DNA from: Verrucomicrobiaceae bacterium | GTDB lineage: Bacteria > Verrucomicrobiota > Verrucomicrobiia > Verrucomicrobiales > Verrucomicrobiaceae | Length of the DNA: 64,000 bases | Direction: 5' to 3' | Assembly: GCA_015075365.1 (NCBI GenBank) | Contig: JABTUN010000005.1 | Location: forward strand, 186,001 to 250,000 | In this document: positions 28,447 through 32,656 of the stretch, one piece after another | Position numbering within the stretch: position 1 is the first letter of the stretch | Layout: each line of letters starts with the position of its first letter | Notes under the pieces: generated by a model | Databases searched by the model: none | What the model was told of the DNA's origin: nothing | What the model saw: the letters and a program-made list of their open reading frames with translations, nothing else | Position numbers and translations under genes: made by a program

Positions 28447-28690
28447 GGGGGCGTTACCTTTTTCTCCGGGATGGCCCCCTTTTTCCAGGTGAGCGCCCCC
28501 TTTCTTTCCGGGGGCGTTACCTTTTTCTCCGGGATGGCCCCCTTTTTCCAGGTGCGCGCCCCCTTTCTTTCCGGGGGCGTTACCCTTTTCTCCGGGATGA
28601 CCCCCTTTTTCCGGGTACGCGCCCCCTTTCTTTCCGGGGGCGTTACCCTTTTCTCCGGGATGACCCCCATTTTCCAGGTTGCGGCCTTTT
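28447..28690 (+). repeat. 63-bp tandem repeat, about 3.8 copies
   Basis: Units begin at 28447, 28510, 28573 and 28636, exactly 63 bp apart without indels; the last is incomplete and decays after about 28680. Each unit starts gggggcgttac and contains gggatg, ccccctttttcc and gcgccccctttctttcc, so complementary G5 and C5 runs can pair within or between units. Because 63 is divisible by three, one frame on each strand stays open through all copies. The minus-strand frame (28317-28670) would encode a 21-residue Lys/Pro-rich repeat (KKGAIPEKKVTPPERKGA..). Neither has a ribosome site, so I list it only as a repeat. Confidence 0.9.
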
Positions 28691-28789: not shown

Positions 28790-29677
28790 ATGCGCCAGCT
28801 TTTTTTCGACGCCATCAATCCCTACACCGGCCGGATTCACACTCTGGACGACGCCAATCTTTTTTTCGGCGCGGACGGCCTCGGCTATGCCCGTGATTCC
28901 TGGGACGAGGGCTTCGTGCCCTATGTGATCCCCGCCCATCCTTCCTCACCAACCAACCCTCCACCCTCCACTCGCATGACACGCCAAAATTACTTCCCCA
29001 CCCGCCAGGCAGACCAGGCCGTCTGGCTGGAGAATTTCCGCTTGAAACTCGTCCTCCACGCCGTGGCGCTGGGCCTGGCCGCGCCGCGCGTGGCGGACAT
29101 CGTGGCAGACGCGCGCTGGCTGGTGCATCTGCTGGTGTCCTGGCTGGGGTCCGTACGCTCGCACGGGAAGGCGGCCACCAGCACGCTGGAGCAGGCGATG
29201 ACGGGCGACGGTCCGCTGACGCTGCCGGTGCACACGCCGCCGCCGCTGGCGGACGGCGTGGTGGCGCGTCCGGCGGGCGCGTTGAGCCGCATCTTTGACT
29301 TCATCGCGGAGATCAAGGAGAACGACGCCTGCACGGAGGCCATCCAGATCGAGCTGGGCATCCTCGGCTCTGTGGAGCCGCCGCCAGACATGCCGAACGT
29401 GCGCCCGGACATCACCGCCATCCTTTCCGCAGCCGGGGTGCAGATCGGCTGGGGCTGGCAGGGCCTGGCGAAGCATCTGGACCAGTGCGAAATCCAGGTG
29501 GACCGCGCTGATGGCAAAGGCTGGGTGGTGCTGACCTACGACACCACGCCCGGCTACCTGGACACGACCCCTTTCCCCGCCGCGCTGACGAAATGGAAAT
29601 ACCGCGCCATCTACCGCGTGGACGACCACCAGGTCGGCCTGTGGAGCGCGGAGGTGAGCGTGAATGTCGGCGGATGA
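28790..29677 (+). CDS. Hypothetical protein with C-terminal fibronectin-like domain
   Basis: 295 residues from ATG 28790, or 233 if translation begins at the internal ATG 28976 (MTRQNYFPTRQADQ). The later start fits the homologous proteins I recall from this phylum, which begin near NYFP. The N-terminal helical region contains DQAVWLENFRLKL and ARWLVHLLVSWLGSVR. The C-terminal ~90 residues (IGWGWQGLAKHLDQCEIQVD to VGLWSAEVSVNV) look like a fibronectin type III or Ig-like fold. The upstream extension LFFDAINPYTGRIHTLDDAN is in frame, so I kept the longer model. There is no signal peptide and no known function. Confidence 0.6.
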   Translation: MRQLFFDAINPYTGRIHTLDDANLFFGADGLGYARDSWDEGFVPYVIPAHPSSPTNPPPSTRMTRQNYFPTRQADQAVWLENFRLKLVLHAVALGLAAPRVADIVADARWLVHLLVSWLGSVRSHGKAATSTLEQAMTGDGPLTLPVHTPPPLADGVVARPAGALSRIFDFIAEIKENDACTEAIQIELGILGSVEPPPDMPNVRPDITAILSAAGVQIGWGWQGLAKHLDQCEIQVDRADGKGWVVLTYDTTPGYLDTTPFPAALTKWKYRAIYRVDDHQVGLWSAEVSVNVGG

Positions 29678-29743
29678 GCGAGTCCCCCAAAAAAAATAGG
29701 TGAGCACAAGCCAAGCCAAAACTAAACATCAAACACAAGCGCC

Positions 29744-30232
29744 ATGACATCAAAACACATCCGATCAACATTATGCACACTAATTGCTACAGCCCTGAGC
29801 CTGTTCGCAACCTTTGCAGTCCCGGCGACTTCATTCGCTGATGACCGTTGTCCTTACTGTGCAAAAGATCACACCAGAGATTGTAATTGGTGCTACTGGG
29901 ATCACGAGTACTATTGGGCTGAGGAGGAGTACAATACACAATGTGATGTCTTGGACGAGATGTATAGCAATCCAAACACAACGCTTGGAGAGATTTCGGC
30001 ACAGGAGGATGTTGTTTCGGAGGCTGGGTACTACTGTGGCTACTGCATTGGTTTAATGGGCTTCAGCGGAGACTGCATCTGCTACAATGACGAGCCGGAC
30101 GAGAACCAGGAGGAAACCCAGCAGGAAACCCAGCAGGAAACCCAGCAGGAGACCCAGCAGGAGACCCAGCAGGAGACCCAGCAGGAGACCCAGCAGGAAA
30201 ACCAGCAGGAGACCCAGCAGGAAAACCAGTAG
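29744..30232 (+). CDS. Secreted cysteine-rich protein with (Glu-Thr-Gln-Gln) repeat tail
   Basis: 162 residues. A clear Sec signal peptide ends PATSFA, followed by a ~85-residue acidic domain with eight or more cysteines in close pairs: CPYC, CNWC, CGYC and CIC. Aromatic residues lie between them (CYWDHEYYWAEEEYN). The last ~40 residues are about ten EXQQ units (X is Thr, or twice Asn). The pattern suggests a disulfide-bonded or metal-binding secreted domain on a flexible polar tail. I recognise no family. Base composition is clearly AT-richer than its neighbours, hinting at transfer. The next gene starts 68 bp downstream after an inverted repeat. Confidence 0.8.
   Translation: MTSKHIRSTLCTLIATALSLFATFAVPATSFADDRCPYCAKDHTRDCNWCYWDHEYYWAEEEYNTQCDVLDEMYSNPNTTLGEISAQEDVVSEAGYYCGYCIGLMGFSGDCICYNDEPDENQEETQQETQQETQQETQQETQQETQQETQQENQQETQQENQ
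30112..30232 (+). repeat. 12-bp coding tandem repeat, about ten units
   Basis: Units of the type caggaaacccag / caggagacccag run head to tail to the stop codon. Synonymous gaa/gag changes and acc/aac changes distinguish the units, so expansion seems to have been followed by drift under amino-acid constraint. Confidence 0.9.
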
Positions 30233-30251
30233 GAGCCGGACGATCCTTAAA

Positions 30252-30286
30252 TCTACTCCCTGATTACCAAAAAGTCTGGGAGTAGA
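30252..30286. terminator. Inverted repeat between two accessory genes (terminator or attenuator)
   Basis: tctactccc and gggagtaga are a perfect 9-bp stem around a 17-base loop, just after the stop codon of the cysteine-rich gene. There is no T-run, so it could be a processing or attenuation hairpin instead of a terminator. Confidence 0.5.
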
Positions 30287-30300
30287 AATCTTCTCCAAAT

Positions 30301-30942
30301 ATGAAAGAAAAAGTGTTTTATTTGCTTGCTGGCATCCTGCCCTTGATTGCCATCGCGGGGGTTTACATCTGGCGTGAGCCGAATGATCAAAAAACCTCCG
30401 CCAAAGATTTTACTTCTGCGCGAGCCCCCCACTCCTCCGTTAAGGCAAACGCAGTTTCATCTGCCTCGATCATGAAAGATGGTGCCAACTCCTTGAATGA
30501 TTCCGACTTCTATCGGCAGATGGTTGAACAGGCTGAGCAGTCAAAGCGAAGGCTTAGAGAAGCCAAAATGAGACTTGTGGAAGCCTCGCCGCCGGAGGTA
30601 ATCAGGCAAAACCACATTAAGGGAATGCGCGACCGCGAACCTCAATTTCGCGAATTGATGATTTCTCTAGGCATACCACATTCTGTCGGCGAAGAAGTGT
30701 TGCAGGTGCTTTTGGAGAGAAACGTTCAATTGAACGAGGTCAATATTGACGCTGCGAAAGAGAGCGATCGAAACTTGAGTTCACTGTTATACACAGGCAA
30801 GGATGCGATAAGAAAACAGAGTTTTGAGAAGCTCGTTAAATTGGTTGGCAGAGATAATGCAGATGCCATATCCCAACTAGATATGAAAATTGATGCCGAG
30901 AACATTGCCCGTGCCCGCAAGGCACGTTATGGCGAGAATTGA
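30301..30942 (+). CDS. Membrane-anchored helical protein of unknown function
   Basis: 213 residues. One N-terminal membrane segment (VFYLLAGILPLIAIAGVYIW) is followed by a polar linker and a long helical, charged body likely to form coiled coils (MVEQAEQSKRRLREAKMRLVEA; later QLNEVNIDAAKESDRNLSSLL). The body probably faces the periplasm. No family was recognised. Base composition is as AT-rich as the preceding cysteine-rich gene, and the two share orientation, so they may have been acquired together. No ribosome site is obvious before the ATG. Confidence 0.75.
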   Translation: MKEKVFYLLAGILPLIAIAGVYIWREPNDQKTSAKDFTSARAPHSSVKANAVSSASIMKDGANSLNDSDFYRQMVEQAEQSKRRLREAKMRLVEASPPEVIRQNHIKGMRDREPQFRELMISLGIPHSVGEEVLQVLLERNVQLNEVNIDAAKESDRNLSSLLYTGKDAIRKQSFEKLVKLVGRDNADAISQLDMKIDAENIARARKARYGEN

Positions 30943-31076: not shown

Positions 31077-31742
31077 ATGGAGGCATCGATGTCCAATTTA
31101 CGGGGAGTCCCAAAAACGAAAGGGCGGGCCTTGTGATTGTCCCTGTTGTTCGCGTTTGCCCTCGGATGGCTCCTTCCTTTCACTTGGGTAGGATCGAAAC
31201 TGGCGCGTCTGCCGTTCCGCATGCCTGACCGTATCTGGCAGCAGTATGCTGCGGCAGGACTTTTCACCCAGCGATCCTCAATCTGGTCTGACTGGCGCAT
31301 CGAAATACGCATGGCCTCCAGCGACGAATGGCGAGTCCTCGACATGGCGCAGGTGTCACCGCAGCCCTCCTCGGGCTACCGGCAGCGGATGGACCGTATC
31401 CTCGGGGACACGCATAACAAAAAGATCGCCGAGAGCCTGCGCATGAGGCTGGCGGGGTGGATCGCCCAACTTCTGAAGAAGCAGGCGGGCATGGAGATCA
31501 GCGGTGTGCGCTACTACCACCGGGCGTGGCGCACGAACACGCCGGAGCTGGCGTTTCCAGACGGGCATTGGAATGGGGACGGGCCGCTGCCGGCGACGAC
31601 GAAGGTCGCGCTGCTGGGAACGTATGGGATCGCGGAGGGGAAGGCCGCGCGGGAGCGGGCCGCGCAGCGCGCGCCCGCTGCGGTGCCGCAACCAAAGATT
31701 TTCCGCCGGGAATCCAAGCAGGAACCGCCTGCAAAGTTATGA
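31077..31742 (+). pseudogene. Membrane protein partner of an HTTM-type gene, interrupted by an in-frame TGA
   Basis: From ATG 31077 (or 31089) the frame reads MSNLRGVPKTKGRAL, then TGA at 31134-31136, then a membrane segment LSLLFAFALGWLLPFTW and about 180 more residues. Replacing the TGA by TGG (Trp) would restore one ~221-residue protein. A TTG right after the stop (31137) could restart translation and still give a 201-residue membrane protein, so it may not be dead. The C-terminal half contains ELAFPDGHWNGDGPLP. The gene overlaps the next by ATGA (31739-31742), implying translational coupling. It resembles proteins I recall beside HTTM-domain genes; the function is unknown. Confidence 0.6.
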
Positions 31743-32656
31743 ATCACCCTTCCAGCCCGGACATGCCAGCCACGTACGGCGAGAGTAGTCCCTCCGGGGC
31801 TTCACAGCGCGGACTGCTGTCTGCGCTGGTGGATGACATCGACGCGCTGCCGCTGCGGGTGTTTGAGGTGCTTTTCACCTGCGCCTTCCTGCTGCGCATG
31901 GGCTGGCTGGGCCTCTCCTGGCGGGAATGGCTGACGGAGGAGGGATTTCACCTCAACGCGGCGGAGCTGGCGGCGGTGGGCTGCCCGGAGCCGCTGCCGT
32001 TGCTGACCGGGCCCGGTGTGGCGGCTCTGGCGGTGGTGATCTGCCTTTCTGCAGCGGGTCTGATGCTGAACAAGGCACGGCGGCTGGCGCTTCTGGGAAT
32101 TTTTGGGTGCGCTCTCTACACCCAGGGTGTGGACTGGATGTCCGCGTCCTCGATCAGCAAGCTGTTCGTCGGTGTGTATGGGATCCTGCTGCTGACGCCG
32201 GGCTACACGCGGGACGCGGCCAGCGGGCGGCTCATGGTGAGCGCGGTGCCGGTGAGGCTGGTGCAGGGCACGCTGATCTGCCAGTATCTTGCCTCCGGGA
32301 TCGCCAAAGGATTCAGCGGTGACTGGCTGAAATACAACGACGTGGTGTACACGCAGATGCAGGGCATTTTCAGGACGGATTTCGCGGCGTGGTGCCTGCG
32401 CACGCTGCCGCTGTGGAGCTGGACGGGGATGTAGTGGGTGACGCTGCTCTTTGAACTGGAGGCACCGGTGCTCTTCTGTGTGCGGAAGCTGCGCCCCATC
32501 GCCTTTGTGATCGGGATGGGGCTGCATCTCATGATCGCGCTGATGATGAAGGACCTGATCTTTTTCAGCGCGCAGATGTGGACCTTCTACGCGCTGTTTG
32601 TGACGCCGGAGCAGTGGCGGTGGCTGGGCGGCGTGCTGCGCGCGGCCTGGAGGTGA
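31739..32656 (+). pseudogene. HTTM-domain-like integral membrane protein, interrupted by an in-frame TAG
   Basis: The frame codes for ~305 residues with several membrane helices (VFEVLFTCAFLLRMGWLGL, GLMLNKARRLALLGIFGC, LVQGTLICQYLASGIAKG). A TAG at 32432-32434 breaks it after residue 231 (..LPLWSWTGM), and the same frame continues WVTLLFELEAPVLF for 73 residues. A single C-to-T change from CAG would explain the stop. The layout resembles HTTM (vitamin K-dependent carboxylase-like) membrane proteins, including SdpB-type proteins, but I am unsure. Losing the last helices probably inactivates it. It is translationally coupled to the preceding damaged gene. Confidence 0.65.

What the first reader, a model, noticed from the sequence alone, without database searches (positions are those of the whole stretch)
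29744..30232. Secreted cysteine-pair protein with a Glu-Thr-Gln-Gln tail
It combines a signal peptide, four closely spaced cysteine pairs in an acidic aromatic-rich domain, and about ten tetrapeptide repeats. I recognise no family. It could be a surface or secreted binding protein, or a precursor peptide, given the (damaged) HTTM-like membrane pair about 0.85 kb downstream.
Basis: partly seen in the sequence, partly recalled or inferred. Interest (0 to 1): 0.58.

Follow-up and report, generated by a model that had tools for sequence, protein, structure and literature searches.

The report
Secreted hairpin protein beside carboxylase-like pair
A small secreted protein with paired cysteines and a repetitive tail belongs to a fast-changing bacterial family that is often encoded next to a membrane enzyme related to the vitamin K carboxylase, which makes it a candidate target of that enzyme.

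Summary
ORF 29744-30232 (gene B) encodes a signal peptide, an acidic core with three CxxC pairs and one CxC, and an (ETQQ)n tail. No Pfam, NCBIfam, PHROGs or PDB family covers the core. It is not a lone orphan: 10 loci in 9 of 68 genomes of its family (Prosthecobacter group) hold relatives, 9 found by profile and one by eye. Seven aligned homologues share only four invariant columns, all Cys (CxxC ... CxC). The tail changes freely (ETQQ, DTQQ, SEPT, EQGT, Cys-rich, Pro-rich). B is followed by a hairpin and a membrane-anchored gene C; in five loci an HTTM pair D-E follows. B and C are hypervariable (21-28% identity) between conserved flanks. The block begins where DNA homology stops at the end of gene A, a slot that elsewhere holds RHS-like or adhesin-like cargo. 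E is homologous to bacterial vitamin K carboxylases; it keeps the catalytic Lys218 but has Lys/Arg for His160. D's model best matches the carboxylase lumenal domain, by fold only. Most likely B is an exported cargo protein modified or matured by D-E and paired with C. Function is inferred. In the window E is broken, D possibly too.

The parts
28790..29677 (+). Gene A, 295 aa, anchor gene: multi-copy family, 16 tblastn matches in this genome; conserved left border of the cargo slot
   Evidence: 25 of 48 congeneric genomes match; DNA homology to relatives stops at or within about 15 bp of its stop codon
29744..29839 (+). Gene B signal peptide, residues 1-32
   Evidence: Hydropathy; cut site by eye
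29744..30232 (+). Gene B, 162 aa: the finding. Signal peptide, Cys-paired helical hairpin (helices 49-75 and 81-107), ETQQ tail
30106..30234 (+). 12-bp tandem repeat coding for the ETQQ tail; the frame closes with TAG inside the array and stays open to TAA at 30248-30250
30252..30286 (+). Intergenic hairpin between B and C, 9-bp stem, no T run after it
   Evidence: z -3.8 against 60 dinucleotide shuffles; hairpin in 8 of 9 B-C gaps
30301..30942 (+). Gene C, 213 aa, N-terminal membrane anchor plus charged helical domain, no known family
   Evidence: profile matches in 21 of 68 genomes of the family
31137..31742 (+). Gene D, TTG start, 201 aa: one N-terminal TM helix plus alpha/beta domain; model resembles the lumenal domain of vitamin K gamma-carboxylase. 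An in-frame TGA at 31134-31136 separates it from an upstream ATG at 31089, so the N-terminus may be damaged
31739..32434 (+). Gene E, first part: HTTM membrane protein with the Lys of the GGCX Lys218 motif; ends at in-frame TAG 32432-32434
32435..32656 (+). Gene E, second part, same frame after the TAG; still similar to intact relatives

Best explanation
B is an exported cargo protein of a variable gene slot. Shown: it is one member of a hypervariable family with a signal peptide, a CxxC near the mature N-terminus, a predicted two-helix hairpin, a CxC (or similar) at the far end of the second helix, and a disordered repetitive tail. The hairpin brings the two Cys clusters to the same end, so they can close it by disulfides or bind a metal (inferred). 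B is followed by a hairpin in the DNA and by C, a membrane-anchored gene that varies as fast as B. In five loci both stand between the conserved gene A and a conserved two-gene HTTM system D-E. Inferred mechanism: B is secreted, its Cys frame closes outside the membrane, and D-E (E the quinone-type HTTM membrane domain with the catalytic Lys, D the outside domain) modifies or matures it. C sits in the same membrane as cognate partner, most likely immunity or receptor. The fast change of B and C and the exchange of cargo in the slot suggest a role in contact or competition with other cells. In this genome E, and perhaps D, is interrupted, so B may now be unmodified or served by another HTTM pair.
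For: B family by profile: 9 loci in 8 of 68 genomes, including G030 at E 2e-47, which was not in the profile, plus one by eye in G021. Only invariant columns are 4 Cys in 7 rows. Helices 49-75 and 81-107 at block pLDDT 65-89. Gene order A-B-C-D-E kept in G025, G027, G024 and, split over two contigs, G038. Identities G000-G038: B 21, C 28, D 66, E 84%; G027-G024: A 89, B 29, C 26, D 42, E 46%. B-C gap hairpin in 8 of 9 loci, not in 6 A-B or 2 C-D gaps. DNA homology ends at A's stop; copies of A about 81% identical overall (92 and 90% over the 3' end) are followed by other cargo in G013; in G024 the last 63 bp of A reappear after E before another secreted-type start. E is HTTM: one relative above the Pfam cut-off, two just below, E 9e-5 to bacterial vitamin K carboxylases over 248 columns; the Lys218 motif is present in 12 of 12 E sequences examined. 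D model: the top 15 entries are all GGCX. All 9 B-bearing genomes hold an HTTM gene against 12 of 39 others.
Against: No function was tested. Three of 10 B loci (G009, G030, G021:C5) show no D-E next to B-C, so local D-E is not obligatory; these genomes do hold another HTTM gene elsewhere, but without the in-cassette cases the HTTM excess is weak (3 of 3 against 12 of 39, p 0.04, post hoc). His160 of the Glu pocket is Lys/Arg in E, against plain Glu carboxylation. D-GGCX rests on fold only (Z 5.5, Foldseek E above 0.2); profile comparison gave nothing. C occurs without B in many genomes. The Glu of the tail is Asp in the nearest relatives. B G009-G030 dN/dS is 0.24, so no positive selection was shown.
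Confidence: 0.4

Rival explanations
1. B is a secreted or surface structural, adhesive or metal-binding protein that needs no enzyme; D-E is only a neighbouring cargo item in the same slot.
For: B-C stands without D-E in 3 of 10 loci. The G021:C5 relative has a tail of repeated CPxCYxxPCxC units that looks like metal ligation or disulfide stacking. Other cargo behind gene A looks like adhesins (named by eye).
Against: D-E follows B-C in all five A-linked loci whose contigs reach that far. Nothing known matches by fold.
Confidence: 0.3
2. B is a bacteriocin precursor of the SdpC kind, with D-E as SdpA-SdpB and C as immunity protein.
For: Secreted Cys-containing product next to an HTTM pair; hypervariable product and partner; SdpA and SdpB are needed to process SdpC (PMC6818787, passages).
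Against: No C-terminal hydrophobic domain in B (highest 15-residue mean hydropathy in the mature part 1.19). E is not matched by the SdpB model: the only hit in this genome is another gene, below the cut-off. No SdpA or SdpB model matched D or E relatives.
Confidence: 0.1
3. The cassette is decaying in this genome and B is a relic without function.
For: In-frame stop in E, in-frame TGA ahead of D, B frame closed inside its repeat; G025 has a broken C and a broken A remnant.
Against: B and C are open; E is under the same constraint on both sides of the stop (dN/dS 0.20 and 0.20), so any decay is recent; relatives are intact.
Confidence: 0.15

Closest known systems
Vitamin K-dependent gamma-carboxylase (GGCX / bacterial VKGC), for D-E
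   Same: E is homologous over the whole membrane domain and keeps the Lys that aligns with Lys218, the base that deprotonates vitamin K hydroquinone (PMC12589487, passages). D's model matches GGCX 403-493.
   Different: Two genes instead of one chain; His160 of the Glu pocket is Lys or Arg; no sequence support for D. Full-length VKGCs exist separately in the same genus.
SdpABC cannibalism toxin system of Bacillus subtilis
   Same: Secreted product beside a two-gene system with a membrane protein.
   Different: B lacks the C-terminal hydrophobic domain; E fails the SdpB model; gene order differs.
Linaridin clusters with an HTTM protein (crdG)
   Same: HTTM protein beside a secreted peptide; its role there is described as unclear (PMC9927463, passages).
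   Different: No other linaridin gene was sought here; B is a 130-residue Cys-paired protein.
Polymorphic toxin cassettes (RHS, contact-dependent inhibition)
   Same: Conserved anchor, exchangeable cargo, a displaced second cargo start behind a short copy of the anchor end.
   Different: The anchor here is a separate gene, not the N-terminus of the toxin; toxicity untested. The comparison is from memory.

Membership tests
HTTM (PF05090), for gene E | Match to the HTTM profile above the curated cut-off | tested here: met
   Relative in G016 32.4 bits against 27.7; G017 25.3 and G027 26.7 just below. The window's first part alone gave no match.
Vitamin K-dependent gamma-carboxylase, for D-E | Lys218 catalytic base | tested here: met
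   Motif present in 12 of 12 E sequences; aligned with VKGC Lys and GGCX
Vitamin K-dependent gamma-carboxylase, for D-E | His160 of the Glu-binding pocket | tested here: not met
   Lys or Arg in 8 of 8 E rows; His in 5 of 5 bacterial VKGC rows
Vitamin K-dependent gamma-carboxylase, for D-E | Lumenal domain behind the membrane domain | tested here: inconclusive
   Fold match Z 4.4-5.5 to 15 GGCX entries, next Z 4.0; no profile match
SdpB (TIGR04033) | Score above the curated cut-off | tested here: not met
   Window E and the C3 copy not hit; only G000:C2:1430110 at 40.8 of 178.4 bits
SdpC | C-terminal hydrophobic domain that becomes the toxin | tested here: not met
   Hydrophilic tail; hydropathy; definition from PMC6818787 passages
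Any Pfam, NCBIfam, PHROGs or PDB family, for the B core | Significant match outside the low-complexity tail | tested here: not met
   weak Pfam hits cover residues 117-159, the repeat tail

The most novel reading that the evidence does not exclude
D-E is a split, quinone-dependent carboxylase-like enzyme outside the known gamma-carboxylases, and the B family is its hypervariable, Cys-clasped secreted substrate: a bacterial counterpart of Gla-type modification with a changed acceptor pocket, used on cargo exchanged between strains.
Probability: 0.12. Interest if true: 0.85.

Novelty: new variant of a known kind. Interest (0 to 1): 0.52.

Why it matters
What bacterial HTTM and carboxylase-like enzymes act on is largely unknown (recalled; for the linaridin HTTM protein a paper says the mechanism is unclear). 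Here a secreted Cys-paired family is co-encoded with a two-gene HTTM system in several species, with the catalytic Lys kept and the Glu-pocket His replaced. That gives a concrete enzyme-substrate pair to test, and a slot in which secreted cargo and its partner are exchanged behind a fixed anchor gene.

Tried and rejected
Single-sequence searches for the B core found nothing beyond itself: Pfam, NCBIfam, PHROGs and PDB, viral contigs and named genomes, and 47 congeners at chance level. Only gene order gave the family. The weak Pfam hits (DDHD, presenilin and others) lie on the Gln-rich tail and were dropped.

B as a phage protein: no PHROGs match of meaning. B fold search in the PDB: best E 0.58, only helical bundles; mean pLDDT 58, so no conclusion. 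D against the VKGC lumenal part by profiles: nothing. C against VKGC: nothing. A classical terminator between B and C in the window: the scan found none on the + strand; only the G038 gap has a T run directly behind its hairpin. Hairpin counts: 9 gaps tested, G021:C5 fails (z -1.2), G024a is weak (z -2.2); L134 has a hairpin and L128 none (no shuffles). Positive selection on B: not seen. The identity of A between G000 and G038 is wrong (bad frame in my script); the 80% used is. In one search several B comparisons involving shorter cores rest on fewer than 25 aligned residues and were not used. Literature: searches returned no paper listed as describing this family or a split carboxylase pair; no claim beyond these searches.

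Full report
Check of the observation. ORF 29744-30232 on the + strand encodes 162 aa with a signal peptide, three CxxC pairs (36/39, 47/50, 98/101), one CxC (111/113), one further Cys (67), an acidic aromatic-rich core and an ETQQ tail encoded by a 12-bp tandem repeat of 10.8 copies. The repeat pattern is unique in the genome. The Cys-pair count by itself is only marginal against shuffling (p 0.07). No Pfam, NCBIfam, PHROGs or PDB family covers the core; the weak Pfam hits lie on the tail. Searches with the single sequence found no relative in viral contigs, in named genomes, or in 47 congeneric genomes above chance.

The family appears through gene order. Relatives of the neighbour D (8 of 48 genomes) and of the upstream gene A (25 of 48) led to loci with the same order. 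Between A and C lies in each case a small secreted protein: G025 (L027 4190-4681), G038 (L075 2-529 minus, cut by the contig end; its tail continues on another contig), G027 (L032 5369-5845), G024 twice (L033 840-1334; L077 2-385 minus, cut), G042 (L081 3559-4005, no ATG start seen in frame). G009 (L030 1782-2375) and G030 have B-C without A or D-E. Seven rows align with exactly four invariant columns, C36, C39, C111, C113; with the G009 row, three remain. A profile of eight rows finds 10 places in 8 of 68 family genomes, which are 9 loci since two places are the halves of G038; G030 was not in the profile and scores E 2e-47, though it is 93% identical to the G009 row over the B part compared. 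A tenth locus, G021:C5 (L133 770-1423), was found by eye upstream of a C match; its tail is a series of CPxCYxxPCxC units and it lacks the N-terminal CxxC. Named records in genome contigs that hold D-E loci are Prosthecobacter sp. and Verrucomicrobiaceae MAGs, plus two more distant ones.

Shape. A three-sequence AlphaFold2 model gives a two-helix hairpin (49-75, 81-107; block pLDDT 65-89) and disorder elsewhere. In this geometry the N-terminal Cys cluster (36, 39, 47, 50) and the C-terminal cluster (98, 101, 111, 113) lie at the same end. Disulfide closure or a metal site is inference.

Surroundings. C (30301-30942) has one N-terminal hydrophobic segment and a charged helical domain; a profile finds 27 matches in 21 of 68 genomes, many without B. 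Two of the C loci without CxxC-type B (L128, L134) still have a small acidic secreted gene just upstream. A hairpin stands in the B-C gap in 8 of 9 loci (z -2.2 to -6.0 against 60 shuffles), with unrelated sequence in each except the near-identical G009 and G030 pair, and not in 6 A-B or 2 C-D gaps. In the window it is 30252-30286. Only G038 has a classical T run directly behind it, so terminator, attenuator or RNA stabiliser remain open.

Variation. Between G000 and G038 the identities are B 21, C 28, D 66, E 84%; between G000 and G025 B 26, D 74, E 80%; between G027 and G024 A 89, B 29, C 26, D 42, E 46%. B and C are thus much more variable than what stands on either side. DNA similarity of A to relatives stops at window positions about 29671-29692, at its stop codon. 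In G013, A copies about 81% identical in DNA overall and 92 and 90% identical over the 3' end are followed by unrelated cargo: a 483-aa protein with head-like repeats in one place, a 230-aa protein and an RHS-like protein in another (names by eye). In G024 the last 63 bp of A reappear after E, before another secreted-type start. GC of B and C is 0.51 and 0.47 against 0.64-0.66 for A, D and E in the window, and similarly lower in the four relatives compared. This is the picture of exchangeable cargo behind an anchor gene.

D and E. E relatives match Pfam HTTM (32.4 bits above the 27.7 cut-off for G016; 25.3 and 26.7 for two others). Profile comparison of E with five full-length carboxylases of the same genus gives E 9e-5 over 248 columns. 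The motif that contains the Lys218 equivalent occurs in 12 of 12 E sequences and aligns with the catalytic Lys in bacterial and animal enzymes; the match to animal GGCX alone is not significant (E 3). In the paper on human GGCX, Lys218 is the base that deprotonates vitamin K hydroquinone, and Asn159, His160 and Tyr395 hold the Glu (PMC12589487, passages). The His160 column is Lys or Arg in 8 of 8 E rows and His in 5 of 5 bacterial carboxylases. D's nine-sequence model (pLDDT 74, pTM 0.60) has GGCX as its first 15 entries in the second-look structural alignment (Z 4.4-5.5, 87-119 residues, mostly GGCX 403-493), then urate oxidase at Z 4.0. Foldseek alone is not significant (best E 0.22, GGCX at ranks 22, 33 and 50), the Z values are in the range the tool calls common, and profile comparison gives no support. 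So D as the outside domain of a split carboxylase-like enzyme is a lead, not a result. E does not belong to SdpB, and B lacks the hydrophobic domain of SdpC.

State in this genome. E carries an in-frame TAG at 32432-32434 while both sides remain similar to intact relatives with the same dN/dS of 0.20. D's frame is closed by a TGA just ahead of the TTG at 31137, so its start is uncertain. B ends by a TAG inside its repeat, six codons before a TAA. Another D-E pair, with a longer D, lies elsewhere in the genome (L072).

How it most likely works. Export of B and its membership in a hypervariable family are well supported. Pairing with C rests on 10 loci and equal variability. Modification by D-E rests on five loci and the enzyme's ancestry; three loci without local D-E speak against an obligatory link, although their genomes hold another HTTM gene. 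The biological role (competition, recognition, matrix) is inference from the exchange pattern. I rate the main reading at 0.4.

Noticed in passing
28447-28679: 63-bp tandem repeat (3.7 copies, 95% matches) just upstream of gene A; partly similar sequence stands upstream of A in G038, and a repetitive reading frame also in G027.
   Followed up: partly
28790-29677: Gene A belongs to a family with 16 tblastn matches in this genome and matches in 25 of 48 congeners, no Pfam or NCBIfam family, and different secreted cargo downstream.
   Followed up: partly
L072 (G000:C3:887000-898000): Second D-E pair in the genome; its D is fused to a leucine-rich-repeat-like part, and upstream stands a large protein with a PENDD repeat and two small genes.
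   Followed up: partly
L133 770-1423: B relative in G021 whose tail is a series of CPxCYxxPCxC units, a possible metal-binding or disulfide-rich repeat.
   Followed up: no
L145-L149: Full-length bacterial vitamin K carboxylase-like proteins (about 300 bits to HTTM) in 5 of 48 Prosthecobacter-group genomes.
   Followed up: partly
L153, L154, L150: Other HTTM proteins directly preceded by a gene with one TM helix and a D-like layout, so two-gene HTTM systems seem common in the genus (by eye).
   Followed up: no
G000:C2:1429963-1430739: Another HTTM gene of this genome that resembles SdpB below the cut-off.
   Followed up: no
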